From the IMG/VR virus record IMGVR_UViG_3300032516_000162, positions 1-26,785 of that record: a DNA stretch of 26,785 nucleotides. The stretch is one strand, 5' to 3'. Position 1 is the stretch's first letter. The number at the start of each line of letters is the position of its first letter. This DNA comes from a virus. This document shows positions 1,895-24,596 of this stretch, piece by piece. A program made the position numbers and the translations under genes. The notes beneath the pieces were generated by a model. The model was given only the letters and a program-made list of their open reading frames with translations, was not told the origin of the DNA and did no database searches.

Positions 1895-2188
1895 TCAATC
1901 GAGGCGGCAAGACCAGTGTTTCCTCCGCAGTTCTAAAGCAATCGCCTCTGCTTTATCCGCGCATAGTTCAGGGTCACGGGTTGCGTCGCTGAGAACTACG
2001 TCAGGCTCTTTTTCCGTCGGCTTCTTATACACGATCTTACATGGCAGCCTTGCGGCATATGATGACTCCACAACGATCTTCCGCGTAAAGCCGCCAGCTT
2101 CACAGGTCCATATGTATCCGGCCAGCAAAGGGGGGTAGGGCAGAAGAAGTGCTAGAGTTGCTGTTTTACCCAAGATGCGAAAGCTCAT
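1895..2188 (-). CDS. Small exported cysteine-containing protein
   Basis: A 97-residue protein that starts with a basic N-terminus and a hydrophobic run (TATLALLLPYPPLLAG), a probable signal peptide or anchor. The rest has the pattern C-E-x-G-G-x-x-R, then PCKIVYKKP, then a C-terminal part ending HWSC. I have seen this order of cysteines in small hypothetical proteins of Gammaproteobacteria (a WTCE...PC.V.Y...C..KA....W.C layout), so I infer a periplasmic disulfide-bonded protein. It is the only leftward gene inside a rightward block, with a Shine-Dalgarno GAGGAA, and looks like an inserted host-derived accessory gene. The function is unknown. Confidence 0.65.
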   Translation of the reverse strand: MSFRILGKTATLALLLPYPPLLAGYIWTCEAGGFTRKIVVESSYAARLPCKIVYKKPTEKEPDVVLSDATRDPELCADKAEAIALELRRKHWSCRLD

Positions 2189-4570: not shown

Positions 4571-4618
4571 CGGAGAAGGTTTGTGCTCGGGCCGGCCTGC
4601 AAGGTCCACTCGCTTTTA

Positions 4619-4628
4619 GGTATAAGGC
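4619..4628 (+). promoter_or_regulatory. GGTATAAGGC promoter-like motif
   Basis: The exact GGTATAAGG core stands 20 bases before the GTG start of the lysine-rich repeat protein gene, with TACT following as at the polymerase copy. This close spacing leaves room for a very short leader with the GGAGG ribosome site. Confidence 0.45.
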
Positions 4629-4648
4629 TACTAGATGGAGGAATTTAC

Positions 4649-5020
4649 GTGAATGCAGAAAAAGAGAGCGCAGTTAAGAGGAAGAGACCTGCCCAGCGTA
4701 GAACCTACAGCGAGGCGGACAAGGTAGAGATAGCAGCCTACATGAAAGCCTGGGGCGAGGCGAACAAGGAAAAGAGAGCTACCCAGCGTAAAGCCTACCG
4801 TGAAACGAACAAGGAAAAGATAGCCGCTGCGAACAGAGCCTACAACGAGGCGAACAAGGAGAGGATAGCTGCCGAAAAGAAAGCCTACAACGAGGCGAAC
4901 AAGGAAAAGATAGCTGCCGAAAAGAAAGCCTACCGTCAGGCGAACCGAGAGAAAATGGTTGCCTACCAGAAAGCCTACCGTCAGGCGAACAAGAAAAAGA
5001 TAGATACCAGCTCACAATGA
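4649..5020 (+). CDS. Lysine-rich 15-residue repeat protein (copy A)
   Basis: GTG is chosen because GGAGG stands eight bases before it. The 123-residue product is almost entirely made of a 15-residue repeat of the form AY-x-x-A-NKEKIAAEKK, about six units. The units nearest the middle are almost identical at DNA level (AAGCCTACAACGAGGCGAAC), which points to recent expansion or slippage. The predicted shape is a long, highly charged helix. Two further proteins with the same repeat lie at 23810-24148 and 24096-24503. In my experience such NKE(K) repeats occur in phage and giant-virus proteins, sometimes near HNH nucleases, but no HNH motif is visible here. A nucleic-acid-binding or scaffold role is only an inference from the charge. 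Confidence 0.8.
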   Translation: MNAEKESAVKRKRPAQRRTYSEADKVEIAAYMKAWGEANKEKRATQRKAYRETNKEKIAAANRAYNEANKERIAAEKKAYNEANKEKIAAEKKAYRQANREKMVAYQKAYRQANKKKIDTSSQ

Positions 5021-9240: not shown

Positions 9241-9310
9241 CTGCTATGCACAGGGGAAAGACTCCGTAGGGAAACAGTTTTTCCGGGGCTCGCTTCGGCG
9301 AGCCCTATTT
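9241..9310 (+). ncRNA. Candidate small RNA of about 65-70 bases
   Basis: The segment is bounded by a near-ideal extended -10 promoter and a strong UUCG hairpin. It can fold a first hairpin (GGGAAA-CAGT-TTTTCC) followed by the terminator stem. It contains no start codon with a ribosome site. It is convergent with the KH-domain gene, so its 3' end is complementary to the 3' end of that mRNA. It may act as an antisense or a stand-alone regulator. The call rests on promoter-terminator architecture only. Confidence 0.45.
9286..9305. terminator. UUCG-loop hairpin between convergent blocks
   Basis: GGGCTCGC-TTCG-GCGAGCCC forms an eight-pair stem with a stable tetraloop. It sits five bases past the stop of the leftward KH gene and just downstream of the small-RNA promoter, so it probably ends transcripts from both sides. 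The T-tracts are weak (TATTT rightward), so efficiency is uncertain. Confidence 0.65.
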
Positions 9311-9567
9311 CACGATACCGCCTCTATGTGGCATTTCATTTTGTGTTTGGCCGCCATCGCGTGCACGAGGATACGGAGAGAGTCTACGTTGCGTCCGCCT
9401 GAGCCTATGATCTTTCCACAATCCTCGCCAGCAACGTTTATCGAAATCAGGATAGTGCCTGAGGCTTCTATATGGGTAATCACGATGGCTTCGGGCTTAT
9501 CTACGAGCAGTCTTACAACCCCTAGGACCACCACGACGATATCTTCTGCCAACTCGCTCGATGTCAT
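9310..9567 (-). CDS. khpA: KhpA-like KH-domain RNA-binding protein
   Basis: An 85-residue single KH domain. It has the KhpA/YlqC layout: helix VVVVLGVVRLLVDKPEA, strand ILISINVAGEDCG, then the GxxG-type loop KIIGSGGRN (52-60), then helix LRILVHAMAAKH. Bacterial KhpA (about 75-80 residues) partners with KhpB/Jag and binds many cellular RNAs. A copy in a phage is unusual. The ATG overlaps the stop of the DHH phosphoesterase gene by four bases (ATGA), so the two are translated together. The likely role is an RNA chaperone for phage or host transcripts, but no KhpB partner is visible in the window. Confidence 0.85.
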   Translation of the reverse strand: MTSSELAEDIVVVVLGVVRLLVDKPEAIVITHIEASGTILISINVAGEDCGKIIGSGGRNVDSLRILVHAMAAKHKMKCHIEAVS

Positions 9568-10382
9568 AAGTCCGCCATTGAAACCGTTACGGAAAAACCC
9601 GCTGCGTTCTTGTGTCCACCACCACCAAACTGCTTTGCCACAGCCGAGACATCGAACTCACCGATGGATCTCAAGGAGTAGATTCGTAACCAAACGCCAT
9701 CGGCAGGGCTCCGATCAGAGAATGTCACTGAGTATGGCCTGTCAGGGTATTTGACACAAAGAGCCATCCCCACCTCGGACGAATAAAAGGCGCTGTTCGC
9801 CGCAGGCACTTCTTTACCTTTGATGAATATCCAGCCAGAGGTTTCTACAATGCGCTGGACATCGTTCTTCATTTTCCGGACAAGGCTGGCCCCTTTGATC
9901 TCCAGGACGTTGGTGTTATGAAGAGACATCCCCCAGAGTTCAAAGGATCGGTCATCCTCGTAGAGCGCCGCTGTAATCTCTTCGGTGCCCGGCAGCTTCC
10001 ATTGCCAGAGATCTCTGTCCTGGATGACACGAAATAGCCAAGGCACGGGCAAGCCTGGAAAGAAGAACTCATAGGCCAGCACAGCCCCCGACTTTTCCAT
10101 ATTAAAGATACAGCAGTCCAGGCCCTCTAAATCCTCTTGAGCCGACTTATGATGATCAATTATGCGGAGGTTCAGGCGCTTCTGTTCCCTCAGGATAACC
10201 TCTCGTTTGAAGCTAAAGTCCAGAACGTACACCTCATCACCGTCGGGACACCCATCGAGCGGTAGCGCGCCCTCATCGTAACGGCACGCTCGATATGTGG
10301 CCTTAGCACCGTACTTCATATAGGCCGCTAGCGCCGCGCCGAAACCATCGATACAGTTGTCGTGGTAGAGCACTCTAATCAT
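9564..10382 (-). CDS. DHH/DHHA1 phosphoesterase, nanoRNase-like
   Basis: A 272-residue enzyme of the DHH family 1. Motifs: YHDNCIDGFGAALAA (H7, D8, D12), VYVLDFSF (D55), IIDHHKSA (D76, H77, H78), QDRDLW (D122, D124), and a C-terminal DHHA1 substrate site QFGGGGHKNAAGF (251-263). All metal ligands of the Mn-dependent active site are present. Relatives degrade short RNAs (NrnA), pAp or cyclic dinucleotides; the exact substrate cannot be read. The start ATG follows GGAAGG and overlaps the upstream stop (ATGA), and the end overlaps the KH gene. It could recycle nanoRNA or remove dinucleotide signals during infection. Confidence 0.88.
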   Translation of the reverse strand: MIRVLYHDNCIDGFGAALAAYMKYGAKATYRACRYDEGALPLDGCPDGDEVYVLDFSFKREVILREQKRLNLRIIDHHKSAQEDLEGLDCCIFNMEKSGAVLAYEFFFPGLPVPWLFRVIQDRDLWQWKLPGTEEITAALYEDDRSFELWGMSLHNTNVLEIKGASLVRKMKNDVQRIVETSGWIFIKGKEVPAANSAFYSSEVGMALCVKYPDRPYSVTFSDRSPADGVWLRIYSLRSIGEFDVSAVAKQFGGGGHKNAAGFSVTVSMADL

Positions 10383-10630
10383 CTGCAACGCCTTCCCGCG
10401 ATTGAGTCTTCTTTTGTTACTCCCCAATGGATTTTGACGCTTGCGCGTATAACATAGCGCAGGCGCAGCCCCGTCTCCCTGCTGATGACAGTCACTAGGT
10501 ACTCATCATCGTCCAAGACCCCATCAGCCAGATACTTCTCCGCGTACCGATGGGCTGCTGCGTAGGGCGTGCTGGCCTTGATAGTGGCTTCGTCGGACTC
10601 TCGCCCGCAACTTACGATAAATTCAGCCAC
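10379..10630 (-). CDS. Hypothetical small protein, first gene of the KH/DHH operon
   Basis: An 83-residue protein. GTG at 10630 is preferred because a TGCTATAAA promoter lies so close that an upstream ATG (10645) would sit at or before the transcript start. The protein reads VAEFIVSCGRESDEATIKAS, then SPYAAA-like helix (TPYAAAHRYAEKYLADG), then strands (DEYLVTVISRETGLRLRYV). It is a compact alpha/beta fold, not recognised. The stop overlaps the DHH gene start. Confidence 0.65.
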   Translation of the reverse strand: MAEFIVSCGRESDEATIKASTPYAAAHRYAEKYLADGVLDDDEYLVTVISRETGLRLRYVIRASVKIHWGVTKEDSIAGRRCR

Positions 10631-10647: not shown

Positions 10648-10656
10648 TTTATAGCA
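10648..10656 (-). promoter_or_regulatory. Extended -10 promoter TGCTATAAA
   Basis: A leftward extended -10 element (TG-C-TATAAA) ends about 18 bases before the GTG of the first gene of the KH/DHH operon and lies just beyond the upstream terminator. It would give a very short leader. Confidence 0.5.
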
Positions 10657-10697
10657 TCTCACTCAAGAGTACCCACTTCTTCAGGTGTGGGATAAGT

Positions 10698-10733
10698 AAA
10701 AAAAAAGCAGCCTCGGAGAATCCCCAAGGCTGC
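10698..10733 (-). terminator. Rho-independent terminator of the CAP lipoprotein gene
   Basis: Leftward, GCAGCCT pairs with AGGCTGC around an inner GGGGATTCTCC hairpin, followed by nine T. This is a textbook intrinsic terminator, and it separates the exported-protein group from the KH/DHH operon. Confidence 0.85.
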
Positions 10734-10771
10734 CCTACCACTGCATATTCACGCGCTCACAATCTGACTGG
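10707..10771 (-). repeat. Duplicated 3' terminator module, copy 1
   Basis: From just after the CAP gene stop the minus strand reads AGTCAGATTG, GCGCGTGAATA, then the terminator. The same order with only scattered changes follows the stop of the 13047-13532 gene. The similarity covers about 60 bases, beyond the hairpin, so it is common descent rather than chance. Confidence 0.7.
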
Positions 10772-10775
10772 ATAC

Positions 10776-11234
10776 TTATAAGAATTCTACTACCCAAAAG
10801 TTATCGACCATGGCCGCACCGACGAGGGTCTGATTAGGGCTGTACATAATGGCCGCATGCCCAGGGCTCTTGGTCCATCCCTGCACAGCCGCAGCCGGTG
10901 TGCGATGACCGCACGCGATGATCTCACCATCAGCTTTAGCCCCGCAGCGACTAGCGCGAGCCCACGGCGAACTTCCATCCGATCCTGTATGACTACAAAC
11001 TCGCCTCGGACCGATGTCTTTAGCGTGCCGTTGGGCGGCACAGTTAAGTCCAGCCGTTGCTGTCACTTTTCTCAGACCGCGCGCGACCCTCACGCGATTA
11101 ATCTCGGCCACAAGATCCGTGGCGGCGCCGGATATTTTCAGAGATGCCGTCGTGCTCCCCTTCTCTTCTTGAAACGCGCTATCACCGCACCCAGCGAGGA
11201 GTAAACACAGTGCAAGGTATCTAATCCTTTCCAT
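10776..11234 (-). CDS. CAP (SCP/PR1-like) domain lipoprotein
   Basis: A 152-residue exported protein. The N-terminus MERIRYLALCLLLAGC is a lipoprotein signal peptide with lipobox LAGC (Cys16). Residues 40-150 are a YkwD-type CAP domain: VAEINRVRVARGL, AAQRHAKDI (H70), SHTGSDGSSPWARA, GEIIACG (E104), WTKSPGHAAIM (H126), and a C-terminal FWVVEFL strand. The His/Glu ligands of the CAP cavity are present. Start: ATG with GGAG five bases before; an upstream in-frame start (11300) lacks this. CAP proteins bind lipids or act on the cell envelope, but their bacterial functions are poorly known. In a phage this is likely a moron gene that changes the lysogen or infected-cell surface. Confidence 0.87.
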   Translation of the reverse strand: MERIRYLALCLLLAGCGDSAFQEEKGSTTASLKISGAATDLVAEINRVRVARGLRKVTATAGLNCAAQRHAKDIGPRRVCSHTGSDGSSPWARASRCGAKADGEIIACGHRTPAAAVQGWTKSPGHAAIMYSPNQTLVGAAMVDNFWVVEFL

Positions 11235-11333
11235 GTACGCTCCATCTCCGGCCGCGCAGCTTCTCGGCAGTGAAGCCAGTATGATAATGGTCCTGCTCAT
11301 GATTAAGCAAGACCACAGAAAACTGTAAACAGA

Positions 11334-11717
11334 CTATAGATCGAAACTGTAGCCAGCGCCAGCCATGATGGAATCTTCACTTGTCACCATACCGAGCATC
11401 GACCACTCCTGACTCCAATTATAAGCATATTGTGCTCCAAAAAGCAGCCCATCCTTTTGAGCCGCTTTCAGATCGAAATCTCTTGTCCCGAGTCTGCCGT
11501 GGCCAATCAAAAGACTGATCGTGTGCGCTTCCGCAAAACTGTAGCCAGCGCCAGCCATGAGGGAATCTTTGCTTGTCACCATACCGAGCGTCGACCACTC
11601 CTGACTCCAATGGTAAGCGTACTGTGCTCCAAAAAGCAGCCCATCCTTTTGAACCGCTCTCAGATCGAAATCTTTTGTACCGAGCCTGTCGTGGCCAATC
11701 AATAGGCTGATCGTGTG
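11334..11717 (-). repeat. 192-base tandem duplication, two units
   Basis: Two units, offset exactly 192 bases, encode the 64-residue beta-rich repeats of the lipoprotein. They differ at scattered sites, many of them silent, so the duplication is older than the stalk repeats but still recent. Confidence 0.85.
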
Positions 11718-12152
11718 CCCCTTGAACACCGGGTCAGCTTCCGCAGAGGCTTCTTCCTTCGGAGCTTCCACAGAAGCTGCTTGCTGCTTCGCTTCTTCCT
11801 TCGGAGCTTCCACAGAAGCTGCTTGCTGCTTGGCTTCTTCCTTCGGAGCTTCCACAGAAGCTGCTTGCTGCTTGGCTTCTTCCGTCGGACTGTCAACTCT
11901 CTTGGGTTTACGATGGACGGTTTTTTTGTCTCTCGGAACAATAGGCTCGCTTTGAGCTTTGTCTTCCTTGACTTCAGGTTTGACTTCGTATACGTCTTCC
12001 TGGGCTTCCTGAATGACCTTGGCTTCAGGAGCCGGCATCGCCTGCGTCCCCTGCGCATCAGCAGGGCGCTCGACCTGAGCTTTTTCGTCTAGATTGCAGG
12101 CAGGAAACAAAAGCAGAGACAAAACCGTCAGCAAACGCGAAAGCGTGCTCAT
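11334..12152 (-). CDS. Repeat lipoprotein with two beta-rich 64-residue units
   Basis: A 272-residue exported protein with signal peptide and lipobox LFPAC (Cys19). Residues 20-90 are acidic/basic and Pro-rich. Residues 91-132 are three copies of EEAKQQAASVEAPK, a flexible stalk. Residues 146-209 and 210-272 are two near-identical units starting HTISLLIGH and ending AGAGYSF. Each alternates hydrophobic and polar residues with aromatic ends, as in outer-membrane hairpins or small beta-barrels (GLLFGAQYAYHWSQEWS, MAGAGYSF). The C-terminal YSFDL resembles an outer-membrane terminal strand. I infer a surface or outer-membrane-associated protein lifted by a stalk. The ATG follows AAAAAAGGAG. Confidence 0.8.
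   Translation of the reverse strand: MSTLSRLLTVLSLLLFPACNLDEKAQVERPADAQGTQAMPAPEAKVIQEAQEDVYEVKPEVKEDKAQSEPIVPRDKKTVHRKPKRVDSPTEEAKQQAASVEAPKEEAKQQAASVEAPKEEAKQQAASVEAPKEEASAEADPVFKGHTISLLIGHDRLGTKDFDLRAVQKDGLLFGAQYAYHWSQEWSTLGMVTSKDSLMAGAGYSFAEAHTISLLIGHGRLGTRDFDLKAAQKDGLLFGAQYAYNWSQEWSMLGMVTSEDSIMAGAGYSFDL
11757..11882 (-). repeat. 42-base tandem repeat, three units
   Basis: Three almost identical 42-base units encode the EEAKQQAASVEAPK stalk of the lipoprotein. The near-identity suggests copy number can change by slippage, which would vary stalk length. Confidence 0.85.
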
Positions 12153-12214
12153 TTTACATCACTCCTTTTTTGGATGTTACGGACCAGAATAGCCGTAATT
12201 AATCGAGATGCCAA

Positions 12215-12223
12215 ATCATAGCA
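12215..12223 (-). promoter_or_regulatory. Extended -10 promoter TGCTATGAT
   Basis: TG-C-TATGAT reads leftward about 60 bases before the repeat lipoprotein start, in a 140-base gap. It has the same TGCTAT core as the promoters at 9226 and 10656, which suggests host sigma-70 control of the exported genes. Confidence 0.5.
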
Positions 12224-12296
12224 TAATCTACTTGCTGCCGTATATCCGTATGGCATTAAGTATGGTTTTTTGAGGCCTGGGTGGGGTCTGTGGCTG

Positions 12297-12731
12297 CTAG
12301 ATAGTACGCCTGCCCTTGAGGTCGTACCCTGAAAACTCGGGGAGCGGGTGCCCGTCCAGGCAATGCCAGAGGTGGAGGCAGTACTGGTGCAGGTTCACGT
12401 ATTTGTCCTCTGGCGGGAAAACCATCATCGCGTACTTATCTTTGCCGATAAACCGCGCCTTGACCGAGGTGATTTCCTCGTAGTTTGGCATTCGCTTCTG
12501 GTGAGCAAAGGAGACATGAAGCCACAGCTTCCCGTCGCCCTCCTGCGAGACCGAAGATATTACGGTGAGCGGGTATAGAAGGTGCTGCCAGAGTTTCCCG
12601 TCCAACCTTGTTTGCGTCACCCGGAAAATCCCGTCGATATCTGTCACATGCTGCATGACAAGCTCCATCGCATTAGCAGGAGTCAACTTCCCATCAATGG
12701 GCAACGTTTCGGTATCGGTGCTCTCTTCCAT
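12297..12731 (-). CDS. Conserved phage hypothetical protein (DUF7694-like)
   Basis: A 144-residue protein. ATG at 12731 follows TGGAG; longer starts would overlap the upstream gene further. The central part KLWLHVSFAHQKRMPNYEE, then VKARFIGKDKYAMMVFPP, then KYVNLHQYCLHLWHCLDG and a final LPEFSGYD form the pattern (W.HVS...R.P.YEE...A..V.P....YVN....LHLW) of a widespread phage and prophage hypothetical family. The function is unknown. The name is from memory. No signal peptide, so it is not part of the exported group although it lies inside it. Confidence 0.75.
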   Translation of the reverse strand: MEESTDTETLPIDGKLTPANAMELVMQHVTDIDGIFRVTQTRLDGKLWQHLLYPLTVISSVSQEGDGKLWLHVSFAHQKRMPNYEEITSVKARFIGKDKYAMMVFPPEDKYVNLHQYCLHLWHCLDGHPLPEFSGYDLKGRRTI

Positions 12732-12912
12732 ATCTGCTCCAATCGTCTTTCTGTTTAGGGAGTCTGTCTGCAAGCACTATTTCAGTGAGTTCGTCCAACA
12801 CAGCCAAATCCTCGGCCAGCTCTTCGGAGATGCCCTGGGGTCCTGTTTTCGGAGGCTCCTGGCAGCACGAGATGGTAAATAACAGACCATATAGATGGCA
12901 CGAAATACGCAC
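12694..12912 (-). CDS. Small acidic protein, possibly a lipoprotein
   Basis: A 72-residue product from a GTG start with only a weak ribosome site. The first 17 residues end LLFTISCCQEPP, which could be a short lipobox (FTISC). The remainder is an acidic helix (SEELAEDLAVLDELTEIVLA) with a basic tail. The overlapping alternative frame gives a Trp/Arg/Ser-rich product and is less credible. It overlaps the next gene by 38 bases. It could be a third small exported protein of this group. The function is unknown. Confidence 0.5.
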   Translation of the reverse strand: MRISCHLYGLLFTISCCQEPPKTGPQGISEELAEDLAVLDELTEIVLADRLPKQKDDWSRYGREHRYRNVAH

Positions 12913-12976
12913 GCTGCTGTTACCTGTCGGTGATTTACATCACCGTAAATGCCCCAGTAGGTATTTTCAAGCACAA

Positions 12977-13013
12977 ATAAAAGAGGCAGCCCCGGAGAAA
13001 CCCCGAGGCGGCC
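12977..13013 (-). terminator. Terminator downstream of the 13047-13532 gene
   Basis: Leftward, GGCCGCCTCGGGG-TTT-CTCCGGGGCTGCC folds into a long stem with two or three mismatches, followed by TCTTTTATTT. It is part of the module shared with the terminator at 10698-10733. Confidence 0.8.
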
Positions 13014-13046
13014 GTACCGTTGCTTATTCACGCGCCTGCAATCTGA
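12985..13046 (-). repeat. Duplicated 3' terminator module, copy 2
   Basis: AGTCAGATTG, GCGCGTGAATA and the hairpin follow the stop codon directly, as in copy 1 at 10707-10771. Both copies have the same position relative to an exported-protein gene. Confidence 0.7.
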
Positions 13047-13532
13047 CTACTTGTGGGCTTTACTTGTCGCTGCATTCATTGAAGCCTGGGCAGCCGCAGC
13101 AGCTCCTGAGGCTGCTCCAGCGTCGATAATAACCGTCTCTTTATAAGGGCGCCCGTTCTCGTCGACGCCTTCACGGGTGTAGGAGATATGCAATGAAACC
13201 GACGCACCCGAGGATCTAATCGCCTGCGAAATCAGCCGCTCACTCATTGTCGTGCCATTACCTGATGGGGTCTTTGGATTGCTCGGGACCGCTTCGCTTC
13301 GCCGATCCACAACCCGAAACTGGTCCCCCAGCCGTACGCCAATCATGGCCCCTGCAAATCCTGGGTCGGTCCTAAATTCATGCACCATACCGTTGAAGAG
13401 CTCCATATCCACCATTGGCTCTGGCTCAGCAGCATCGATGGGGGCGACCTCCTCATACCCGTGACCATACACCGTTGCGTATGTGGGTGTGGAAAGTGCG
13501 AACAGTAGCGGTAGCAGTAGTTTACTTGTCAT
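13047..13532 (-). CDS. Exported hypothetical protein
   Basis: A 161-residue protein. The ATG follows AAAGGAG, with a signal peptide (MTSKLLLPLLFALSTPTYA, likely cut after TYA). The mature part is acidic at first, then has a strand-rich core (FAGAMIGVRLGDQFRVVDRR, SGASVSLHISYTREGVDENG, KETVIIDAG) and an Ala-rich tail with AASGAAAAAQASM. No cysteines are in the mature part. A periplasmic or surface location is inferred. It is not recognised. It shares a terminator module with the CAP lipoprotein gene and lies in the same exported-protein group. Confidence 0.75.
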   Translation of the reverse strand: MTSKLLLPLLFALSTPTYATVYGHGYEEVAPIDAAEPEPMVDMELFNGMVHEFRTDPGFAGAMIGVRLGDQFRVVDRRSEAVPSNPKTPSGNGTTMSERLISQAIRSSGASVSLHISYTREGVDENGRPYKETVIIDAGAASGAAAAAQASMNAATSKAHK

Positions 13533-19035: not shown

Positions 19036-19794
19036 TCATGGCAATTTACACTCATCGTATGGTGCCCTAGCTACTATTCTTTCCATAGCGCATTCTGGGC
19101 ACTCCTCAAAAGGTGAGCCCCCTACTCTGCTGGTAATCTTAGCGCACCCGCGGCATTCAAATGTGAGATCCTCTGCGCCGAGGGGACTGTCCGCGAGCAT
19201 CATGTCGCGCGCGGCCTCCCTATCCTCGGAGTCTCCGTCAAACCCTCCGTACATCTTCTGCGAGTCCTCCATCCGCTTCTTTGCAGCAGCTGCGACTTCC
19301 TCGTAGGTGAGCTTATGGTTGAAGAAATACCCATAGATCTCTCCGGGGCCATAGAAGCTCCAGACATAGTTGATGAAGTCCTGACGTTCGGTTGTTTCGT
19401 CACCACCGCTATGGGCAATGTCCCACAATTGTCTTACTTTCAGACGCTCAGCTAGGACGGTCTTCTGACTGACATTGTTCAGATCAAGCGTAAGTTTCCC
19501 TTTGTCGTTACGGACTGCTTTCTGCTCGTAGCAGCTAACAACGCCTGGCCAGATGCCATCCCAAATATCGCCATCACGTTCTTCATCGCCGCCATCGCAT
19601 TCACACGATAGGCACTGACCGCCGCATTTTAGGCAACGGGCGATATCACACCCAACATTATGAGGCTGGCCTTGCTTGACCCCGCAGTCCACGCAATCGC
19701 GACCCCAAAACGCACTTTTTTCTTCGGCAAATAGTTCATCAAGAGTGCCCTGTGAATATTTGCTCTCTTCGATCTTGTCGTCTAATCCACTCAT
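19036..19794 (-). CDS. Cysteine-rich zinc-ribbon protein
   Basis: A 252-residue protein. ATG at 19794 follows TTAGGA; a longer in-frame start lies inside the 53-base leader repeat and is less likely. Residues 34-66 carry CVDCGVKQGQPHNVGCDIAR, CLKCGGQCLSCEC, i.e. nine Cys/His ligands for two zinc sites. The C-terminus has another ribbon, CRGCAKIT...ECPECA. Between them is a helical domain with YGPGEIYGYFFNHKLTYEEV. The N-terminal cluster resembles a C.CGV..G..H..GC..E.CP.CGGQ..SC.C element of bacterial hypothetical proteins. Nucleic-acid binding is plausible. Confidence 0.72.
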   Translation of the reverse strand: MSGLDDKIEESKYSQGTLDELFAEEKSAFWGRDCVDCGVKQGQPHNVGCDIARCLKCGGQCLSCECDGGDEERDGDIWDGIWPGVVSCYEQKAVRNDKGKLTLDLNNVSQKTVLAERLKVRQLWDIAHSGGDETTERQDFINYVWSFYGPGEIYGYFFNHKLTYEEVAAAAKKRMEDSQKMYGGFDGDSEDREAARDMMLADSPLGAEDLTFECRGCAKITSRVGGSPFEECPECAMERIVARAPYDECKLP

Positions 19795-19840
19795 TGTATG
19801 GTGTCCTAATTTGCATGGTTGGCTATTTTGAACGATCATT
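19788..19840 (-). repeat. 53-base leader repeat, copy 1
   Basis: This segment is identical to 20068-20120 except for one base. It carries the ribosome site and start of the zinc-ribbon gene, so the repeat duplicates a translation-initiation region plus about 35 bases upstream. A weaker third version (TTAGGA, CCATAC) precedes the gene starting at 19015. Confidence 0.9.
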
Positions 19841-20074
19841 CACGCAGTAGAAATCGACACAGTTAGCAGTCTGCTTCTTGACCATAGCGATATAGTTGTC
19901 GAAAGATTCCACGACGTTTTCCTGCGATGCGATATTGGCTGCTACGAGGTGCGCCATGGCCTTCATAATGTGCCCACCATGGTACTTCATGAAGATGGGC
20001 ATAAAGGCCTCCGTGAGCTCCCTGACACACTTCTCGGTTACGTGGTTGCCCAGATCAGTCATTTCTTCACTCAT
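19823..20074 (-). CDS. Hypothetical helical protein
   Basis: An 83-residue protein. ATG at 20074, chosen because it sits at the same place in the duplicated leader as the zinc-ribbon gene start. The sequence is helical (VRELTEAFMPIFMKYHGGH, AMAHLVAANIASQENV) with two Cys near the end (CVDFYCVND). It is not recognised. It shares its leader with the downstream zinc-ribbon gene, so the two are probably co-regulated. Confidence 0.65.
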   Translation of the reverse strand: MSEEMTDLGNHVTEKCVRELTEAFMPIFMKYHGGHIMKAMAHLVAANIASQENVVESFDNYIAMVKKQTANCVDFYCVNDRSK

Positions 20075-20120
20075 TGTATGGTGTCCTAATTTGCATGGTT
20101 GGCTATTTTGAATGATCATT
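20068..20120 (-). repeat. 53-base leader repeat, copy 2
   Basis: This is the upstream copy of the repeat at 19788-19840, 280 bases apart, one mismatch. It contains the start codon region of the 83-residue protein gene. Its outer end has ATGATCATT, a small palindrome (TGATCA), which may be an operator. Confidence 0.9.
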
Positions 20121-23583: not shown

Positions 23584-23823
23584 TTAGATCTGGGGGATTC
23601 CTCTTGGCTCTACATCTTTGTACTGGTCGATCGTACCGGCCACGACGCACGCATATGCGCCAGGGTACCTCCCGTGGATCTCCGCCTGTATATCATCGCG
23701 GAAATAGCCAGCGACAACGCACTCGATGCAGATCTCACCTTTCACGACCGCGCTCTTGACCCAATACGGATTCTTGCCATGAATCCCGCAGATGTTAACT
23801 TTGTCCTTGTCACCGCTTCTCAT
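23584..23823 (-). CDS. Small cysteine-containing protein
   Basis: A 79-residue protein. ATG at 23823 follows GAGGAGA and lies within the end of the repeat protein gene. The sequence has C-G-I-H (residues 9-12) and C-I-E-C (about 29-32), a plausible four-ligand zinc site, followed by FRDDIQAEIHGRYPGAYACV. It is not recognised. Confidence 0.65.
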   Translation of the reverse strand: MRSGDKDKVNICGIHGKNPYWVKSAVVKGEICIECVVAGYFRDDIQAEIHGRYPGAYACVVAGTIDQYKDVEPRGIPQI

Positions 23824-24148
23824 TGAGGGTCTCCTCTGCAAGGTTCTTCTGGTCTTCGCGTCTTTTTAGACGGGCAGCTTTTCTTCTGACAGCCAAGACT
23901 TCTTTGTTCCGCTCCCTATACTTCTTGCTATACCCGGCGGACTTGCGGGCCATAGTCTCCTTGTTCCGCCTGTAGTACTCCTTGCTGTACGCAATTTTCC
24001 TCTCCTTATTCTTTTGGTAGTACGCGCGCTGGTAGGCAGCTAGAACCTCTTTGTTCTTCTCATTATAGGCCTCCCGATCTGCAGCCGCTGTGTCTTTATG
24101 CTTTTCCTTGTACGTCTGATCCCAAACGCGCCTTTTCTCTTTTGTCAT
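23810..24148 (-). CDS. Lysine-rich 15-residue repeat protein (copy B)
   Basis: A 112-residue protein with an ATG behind AAGGAAG. About five repeats of the type AYNEKNKEVLAAYQR / AYYQKNKERKIAYSK / EYYRRNKETMARKSA. The unit length (15) and the NKE core are the same as in the 4649-5020 protein, but the units have diverged. The neighbouring upstream gene encodes a third member, overlapping by 53 bases. The protein is very basic. It probably binds nucleic acid or an acidic surface as an extended helix. The function is unknown. Confidence 0.78.
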   Translation of the reverse strand: MTKEKRRVWDQTYKEKHKDTAAADREAYNEKNKEVLAAYQRAYYQKNKERKIAYSKEYYRRNKETMARKSAGYSKKYRERNKEVLAVRRKAARLKRREDQKNLAEETLNEKR

Positions 24149-24503
24149 GTGCTTCCTTATCCCGCCTCAATTTCTGAGTGGCCATTAGCCGATCTTTGTT
24201 TTTCTTGTAATACTCTTTTTGGTATTCGGTTCTTCTCTCTGCGGAACCCTCGCGCCGTGCAGCTATCTCTTCCCTGTTCGTCTTGCAGTGTCTACTCCTT
24301 GTCCGGATGTGGTCCTTGTTTTCTTCGTTATACGTCTTTGTCTTAACGGCTTTACTAACTCGGTGCTTTCGGCCGTACTCTCTGCTTTGAGCGCAGAGCC
24401 GCTCCCTGTTGGCAAGGTAGTATGCCCTTGCTTTCTTTCTGACCTCAGCCTTCGTCCTCTCATAGCGAGCCTTTCTTTTAGCGGCTATGGCTTCGATGCT
24501 CAC
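24096..24503 (-). CDS. Lysine-rich repeat protein (copy C)
   Basis: A 135-residue product from a GTG five bases after GGGG; the frame extends upstream to 24548 without a better site. Units such as KARAYYLANRERLCAQSRE, YNEENKDHIRTRSRH and EYQKEYYKKNKDRLMATQK keep the [Y]xxxN(K/R)(E/D) spacing of 15 residues, but are the most diverged of the three proteins. It ends with a short region KARLGSDVQGKA. It overlaps the start of the copy B gene. The GTG start with the same type of opening (VSIEA..., VNAEKE...) as copy A suggests common origin. Confidence 0.72.
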   Translation of the reverse strand: MSIEAIAAKRKARYERTKAEVRKKARAYYLANRERLCAQSREYGRKHRVSKAVKTKTYNEENKDHIRTRSRHCKTNREEIAARREGSAERRTEYQKEYYKKNKDRLMATQKLRRDKEAHDKREKARLGSDVQGKA

Positions 24504-24596
24504 GTCAACCCCACTTAAGTAAATTATTCCAGGCGCTGTAAATACCATTAGCAGTAATTTACGATGACTTCAGCAGAAATTTGCGGTGGTTAGAGA

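What the first reader, a model, noticed from the sequence alone, without database searches (positions are those of the whole stretch)
10776..13532. Cluster of exported proteins in a phage: CAP lipoprotein, repeat lipoprotein, signal-peptide protein
Three (possibly four) adjacent leftward genes encode exported products, with separate TGCTAT-type host promoters and intrinsic terminators. A CAP-domain lipoprotein in a phage is unusual. The set looks like lysogenic conversion or superinfection-exclusion genes that alter the envelope.
Basis: partly seen in the sequence, partly recalled or inferred. Interest (0 to 1): 0.6.

Follow-up and report, generated by a model that had tools for sequence, protein, structure and literature searches.

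The report
Swappable exported-protein cassettes in a phage
A stretch of an uncultivated tailed-phage genome carries four genes for proteins sent out to the bacterial envelope, and related phages carry a secreted nuclease, protease and cell-wall enzyme at the same spot, so this looks like a swappable accessory locus acting outside the cytoplasm.

Summary
The exported cluster is real. Window 10776-13532 holds a signal-peptide protein (SP), a small lipoprotein, a charged-repeat/beta-repeat protein with a near-lipobox, and a CAP-domain lipoprotein; the DUF7694 protein between them has no export signal. A second assembly carries the same arrangement. Three related phages (window, G001, G005) are collinear around it. 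SP, small lipoprotein and DUF7694 are shared. The 1,635-bp block with repeat protein, CAP and terminator occurs only here; G001 and G005 have a secreted SNase and other genes instead. G001 also has a trypsin-like lipoprotein plus a secreted lytic transglycosylase beside SP. Those genes recur in phages with unrelated terminases, three times with a probable SP relative directly upstream of the protease. The locus is therefore an interchangeable exported-gene ("moron") locus. The CAP protein scores best against DalA, an outer-membrane peptidoglycan-binding lipoprotein, but below cut-off. Lysogenic conversion is not supported: no tyrosine or serine recombinase was found in the fragments held. Superinfection exclusion is possible but untested. 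The host is Gram-negative, possibly Bdellovibrionota (indirect evidence). Promoter claims are only partly borne out. I favour envelope/peptidoglycan-acting accessory proteins; a two-envelope exit kit for phages of predatory bacteria is the most novel reading not excluded.

The parts
13047..13532 (-). SP protein, 161 aa, type I signal peptide; shared core of the locus
   Evidence: orthologues L078:9968-10447 (85% identity) and L088:958-1389 (30%); dN/dS 0.08; probable relatives upstream of the trypsin-like lipoprotein in L123, L126, L127
13561..13590 (-). candidate SP promoter TAGACT-N18-TATATC, at the edge of homology with the relative
   Evidence: conserved in G001 as TAGACT-N18-TATATA; weak consensus match, not picked up by the scan
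12979..13048 (-). 70-bp terminator element after SP
   Evidence: repeat family D4, terminator scan, present after SP in G001 and, shortened, in G005
12694..12912 (-). small lipoprotein, 72 aa (GTG start)
   Evidence: orthologues L078:10580-10792 and L088:1511-1726, about 70% identity; dN/dS 0.31-0.34
12297..12731 (-). DUF7694 / phrog_7839 protein, no export signal; conserved anchor gene
   Evidence: PF24746 E=6e-22, phrog_7839, dN/dS 0.125
10655..12289 (.). exchangeable block: promoter-like site, repeat protein, CAP, terminator
   Evidence: no homology here between otherwise collinear blocks of window and G001/G005; present in a second assembly, 99.985% identical over 13.5 kb
12215..12223 (-). 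extended -10 like TGCTATGAT upstream of the repeat protein
11334..12152 (-). exported repeat protein, 272 aa: signal peptide with near-lipobox FPAC, 118-aa K/E/A/P/Q-rich linker, two 64-aa repeats predicted all-beta
   Evidence: fold not resolved (pLDDT 37-43)
10776..11234 (-). CAP-domain lipoprotein, 152 aa
   Evidence: PF00188 E=1.7e-14; DalA NF052539 E=3.5e-16, below cut-off; H82, E104, W120, H126 invariant with bacterial CAPs
10700..10769 (-). 70-bp terminator element after CAP, 81% identical to the SP copy

Best explanation
This is an accessory (moron-type) locus of exported proteins in a phage of a Gram-negative host; a close relative has a contractile tail sheath. Shown by sequence: the locus has a shared core (SP, small lipoprotein, DUF7694) and swappable modules next to it; the window's module is repeat protein, CAP lipoprotein and terminator, while relatives carry a secreted nuclease and, in one case, a trypsin-like lipoprotein plus a lytic transglycosylase. 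Inferred: the genes are expressed from their own promoters during infection, the products pass through Sec, lipoproteins are anchored in the envelope, and they act on peptidoglycan, periplasm or nearby macromolecules to remodel or help dismantle the host envelope. In the window the CAP lipoprotein would bind peptidoglycan as DalA does, and the repeat protein, extended by its charged linker, would act at the wall or outer membrane. SP may be a partner (inhibitor, chaperone or adaptor) of the phage protease, which is not at this locus in the window phage.
For: Collinearity with a clean replacement of 10655-12289, and a 28-bp versus 3.5-kb difference upstream of SP. Alternative cargo identified as SNase, Trypsin_2 and SLT, all with signal peptides. 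Catalytic residues kept: trypsin triad and SLT glutamate invariant; SNase motifs invariant. Trypsin-like lipoprotein plus SLT shared with phages that have other terminases and no other common gene among those searched; in L121 and L122 they lie near amidase and lysozyme genes. SP-like protein directly upstream of the protease in L123, L126, L127. Purifying selection on SP and SNase. CAP best matches DalA, an outer-membrane peptidoglycan-binding lipoprotein (PMC10470522).
Against: No expression data. The repeat protein's fold is unresolved and no relative was found outside this phage. CAP proteins have no agreed biochemical activity, and the DalA score (59.5 bits) is far below its cut-off (200). 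The promoter evidence is weak. SP homology between the two groups rests on weak statistics (hhalign E=0.0026, probability 11.5%; mature-part score 19.9 against a shuffle maximum of 18.8).
Confidence: 0.6

Rival explanations
1. Superinfection exclusion: the lipoproteins bind and block the phage receptor or DNA entry at the envelope, as T5 Llp does in a lytic phage; variation in cargo reflects competition between phages.
For: Exported lipoproteins, variable between close relatives, outside the structural module. Precedents: T5 Llp (PMC9586334), Ltp (PMC3952083).
Against: Replacement cargo consists of enzymes, not receptor blockers. No family match to a known exclusion protein in Pfam, PHROGs, NCBIfam or PADLOC.
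Confidence: 0.2
2. Lysogenic conversion: the genes are expressed from a prophage and change the lysogen's envelope.
For: Moron-like layout with own terminators. A Gp3-like RDF-family protein and an XRE regulator in the relative.
Against: No tyrosine or serine recombinase in seven related records. No close terminase relative in 291 Bdellovibrionota genomes, although the host is uncertain. All records may be fragments.
Confidence: 0.07
3. Lysis functions: small lipoprotein or repeat protein act as outer-membrane spanins and the exported enzymes are auxiliary endolysins.
For: Trypsin and SLT genes lie near amidase or lysozyme genes in L121 and L122; lipoproteins are typical o-spanins (general knowledge).
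Against: No inner-membrane spanin partner was seen overlapping the small lipoprotein. CAP, SP and nuclease are not known lysis proteins. The modules are exchanged between relatives.
Confidence: 0.13

Closest known systems
Moron / accessory exported genes of phages
   Same: own terminator, absent from close relatives, cargo exchanged between unrelated phages, not part of the structural module
   Different: concentrated in one locus with a conserved exported core, and cargo of secreted hydrolases in phages without a detected integrase
DalA, divisome-associated lipoprotein of Rhodobacterales (NF052539, PMC10470522)
   Same: lipoprotein; best subfamily match of the window's CAP protein (E=3.5e-16)
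   Different: phage-borne, 59.5 bits against a cut-off of 200; peptidoglycan binding not tested
CAP proteins of Bacillus megaterium phages Stills, Stahl, Slash, Staley
   Same: secreted CAP domain in a tailed phage; role unknown (PMC4541274)
   Different: annotated as LysM/YkwD-like secreted proteins of Gram-positive phages; about 27% identity
T5 Llp superinfection-exclusion lipoprotein (PMC9586334)
   Same: lipoprotein made by a tailed phage and exported to the host envelope
   Different: no sequence relation detected; receptor blocking not shown here
Secreted predation enzymes of Bdellovibrio (Bd3285 transglycosylase, Bd0934/Bd3507 nucleases, Bd2269/Bd2692 proteases)
   Same: same classes of secreted enzyme as in the related phages' cassettes
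   Different: homology to the phage proteins not tested, and the MltA-like Bd3285 is another transglycosylase type; link to the phage host is inferred only

Membership tests
CAP superfamily (PF00188) | profile match above gathering score | tested here: met
   55.1 bits against 21.1
CAP superfamily (PF00188) | conserved cavity residues (His, Glu, His) | tested here: met
   H82, E104, H126 invariant with three Bdellovibrionota CAPs; second Glu not assessed
DalA (NF052539) | score above NCBI cut-off | tested here: not met
   59.5 bits against 200
Moron gene cassette | absent from otherwise collinear relatives | tested here: met
   10655-12289 replaced in G001 and G005
Moron gene cassette | own terminator | tested here: met
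   terminators after SP and CAP
Moron gene cassette | own promoter | tested here: inconclusive
   extended -10 at 12223, scan not above chance
Lysogenic conversion locus | phage is temperate (integrase or equivalent) | tested here: inconclusive
   no PF00589 or PF00239 in seven possibly fragmentary records; RDF-family protein present
Superinfection-exclusion lipoprotein (Llp, Cor, Ltp) | blocks adsorption or DNA entry of related phage | not testable with these tools
   needs expression and plating
Spanin | o-spanin with overlapping or adjacent i-spanin carrying a transmembrane helix | tested here: inconclusive
   no such partner seen near the small lipoprotein in the ORF lists; not searched systematically

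The most novel reading that the evidence does not exclude
Phages of predatory Bdellovibrionota share a pool of exported proteins (SP with trypsin-like lipoprotein, transglycosylase, nuclease, CAP and repeat proteins) that act beyond the predator's own envelope, in the prey remnant or bdelloplast, so that phage progeny can escape through two envelopes or draw more nutrients from the prey.
Probability: 0.12. Interest if true: 0.75.

Novelty: new variant of a known kind. Interest (0 to 1): 0.48.

Why it matters
It shows a defined locus where related phages exchange exported proteins, including a protease-transglycosylase pair shared by phages with otherwise unrelated genes. If the host is a predatory bacterium, it offers candidate genes for how such phages handle a host that lives inside another cell, which is hardly studied; only one paper in the searched library uses the word bdellophage.

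Tried and rejected
Outer-membrane beta-barrel for the repeat domain: suggested by a weak PorP_SprF hit (E=0.014), a weak porin hit in one Bdellovibrionota genome (E=0.004 in one of 291, about chance) and eight predicted strands. Beta-moment was not above shuffles (z=-0.05; a real porin gave only 1.97), and a fold search with this low-confidence model gave no match at E<=0.001, with propeller-like beta sheets among the top hits. Left open. Recent acquisition of the block by composition: no support, G+C 52.2% equals the rest of the window. Host from CAP: no close relative by pattern scan of genome contigs and 23-39% identity in 51 of 291 Bdellovibrionota genomes; no comparison phylum was available. 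Host from SNase: the only two relatives found by pattern were both Bdellovibrionota, but a Desulfocapsa plasmid protein is about as similar (44.5%), so the host remains uncertain. SP and repeat protein have no convincing host homologues. No close terminase relative in 291 Bdellovibrionota genomes. PADLOC matches of trypsin and SNase cover only those shared domains.

Full report
What is there. The window is a 26,785-base IMG/VR phage fragment with a large terminase (phrog_675), a family A type DNA polymerase and a DHH phosphoesterase. Between 10776 and 13532, on the minus strand, lie five genes: SP protein, small lipoprotein, DUF7694 protein, repeat protein and CAP lipoprotein. Four carry signal peptides; DUF7694 does not. 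The CAP gene starts at ATG 11234; its lipobox is LAGC. (Searches used 10776-11225, three residues short.) The small lipoprotein starts at a GTG and is conserved in two related phages. The repeat protein has FPAC at the expected lipobox, which is atypical, so its lipidation is uncertain. The arrangement also occurs in IMGVR 3300032342_000119, 99.985% identical over 13.5 kb, so it is not a single-assembly artefact.

Comparison with relatives. IMGVR 3300037498_000108 (G001, 82 kb) and 3300035701_008901 (G005) match the window at about 77-93% DNA identity through the flanks. SP, small lipoprotein and DUF7694 are shared; SP diverges to 30% in G005. The block 10655-12289, with repeat protein and CAP, is absent from both; in its place are an exported SNase and several other genes. 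Just upstream of SP the window has 28 bp where G001 has 3.5 kb, including a trypsin-like lipoprotein and an SLT transglycosylase with signal peptide, both on the opposite strand to SP. In the window a small gene at this point is truncated compared with G001, which suggests a deletion in the window's lineage, though the direction is not proven. CAP and repeat protein were not found in the 15 related records searched, apart from the second assembly.

Modules shared by unrelated phages. A scan for the trypsin-like lipoprotein found other phage contigs at 60-69% identity. L121 and L122 carry protease then SLT in the same order, near an amidase (L121) and a lysozyme gene (L122); L131 carries the end of the protease gene followed by SLT. 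Of about 110 proteins of G001, G002 and G004 searched, only protease and SLT matched L121, L122 or L123, and the terminases of L122 and L123 match other Pfam families. In L123, L126 and L127 a 140-aa exported protein sits immediately upstream of the protease. It resembles SP: profile search E=0.007 among 10,532 ORFs, BLAST against the G005 SP 3e-4, hhalign E=0.0026 with a probability of only 11.5%, and the mature-part score exceeds all of 200 column shuffles, 19.9 against 18.8. I regard SP homology as probable, not proven. It makes SP a candidate partner of the protease; the window has SP without the protease at this locus.

Is the clustering more than chance? With my own signal-peptide rule, 3 of 5 ORFs in the window locus score against 0 of 42 elsewhere (p=6e-4), and 5 of 18 in the G001 locus against 2 of 127 elsewhere (p=3e-4). 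The locus was chosen beforehand by the finding and the gene picker misses small genes (it skips the small lipoprotein inside, and does not flag the 97-aa exported gene at 1895-2188 outside), so these are indications. Selection is clearer: dN/dS is 0.08 for SP, 0.08 for SNase and about 0.3 for the small lipoprotein.

Transcription signals. Two strong terminators are copies of one 70-bp element, 81% identical, after SP and after CAP. The element follows SP in G001 and, in shortened form, in G005; in the window it has been duplicated or imported behind CAP. An extended -10 TGCTATGAT lies upstream of the repeat protein, and a weak promoter-like site conserved with G001 lies upstream of SP. The second TGCTAT motif (10656) lies in front of the next gene. 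The promoter scan is not above chance.

What the proteins may do. The CAP protein keeps the conserved His, Glu and His. Its best subfamily match is DalA, an outer-membrane lipoprotein that binds peptidoglycan and is needed for normal division in Rhodobacter (PMC10470522), but the score is far below the family cut-off. The repeat protein has a 118-aa charged, proline-rich linker and two 64-aa repeats predicted all-beta; models were poor (pLDDT 37-43) and its fold stays unresolved. The alternative cargo keeps its catalytic residues. Together this points to action on peptidoglycan, periplasm or nearby macromolecules. Export signals and replacement are shown by sequence; expression, location and activity are inferred.

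Lifestyle. The relative has tail sheath, head, clamp, SSB, dUTPase and nuclease genes. No integrase-type or resolvase-type recombinase was found in seven related records. A Gp3-like RDF-family protein and an XRE regulator are present, and the records may be fragments, so a temperate life is unlikely but not excluded.

Host. The envelope proteins suggest a Gram-negative host. The only two genome relatives found by pattern for the SNase are Bdellovibrionota MAGs, and 62 of 291 genomes of that phylum encode one, mostly at 35-48% identity; CAP and trypsin relatives occur there too. However a Desulfocapsa plasmid SNase is about as similar and no other phylum could be searched in the same way. I put Bdellovibrionota at roughly even odds. 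If right, the enzyme classes match those Bdellovibrio secretes: a transglycosylase (PMC10127604), nucleases (PMC7925074) and exit-phase proteases (PMC12546842). That is the basis of the novel reading, which remains speculative.

Verdict.

Noticed in passing
window 8736 region; L082:3155, 7644, 8016, 8620; L005:1644: A recurring motif FW(V/L/D)GFEK(R/Q/K)A, mostly near the N-terminus, occurs in at least six otherwise different phage proteins, several in the structural region; it might be a targeting or processing signal.
   Followed up: partly
window 19788-19840 and 20068-20120: Two consecutive genes begin with the same 53-bp sequence (98% identical), giving nearly the same leader MI(V/I)QNSQPCKLGHHTMS.
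   Followed up: no
window 4583-5020, also 23810-24548: Proteins built of repeats like ANKEKIAAxxKAY (45-bp tandem repeats at 4676-5003), with similar proteins in the relatives.
   Followed up: no
window about 12934-12950: A palindrome-like TTTACGGTnnnGTAAA upstream of the small lipoprotein is nearly conserved in all three phages and could be an operator.
   Followed up: no
window 1895-2188: A further exported 97-aa protein, on the opposite strand to its neighbours, 77% identical in two relatives; dN/dS 0.63 against one of them.
   Followed up: partly
G001 (L081-L083): A protein matching the Gp3-like recombination-directionality-factor family (PF18897, E=1e-31) in a phage with no detected integrase.
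   Followed up: partly
window 9310-10427: KhpA-like KH-domain gene overlapping a DHH phosphoesterase gene, conserved in order across the relatives.
   Followed up: no
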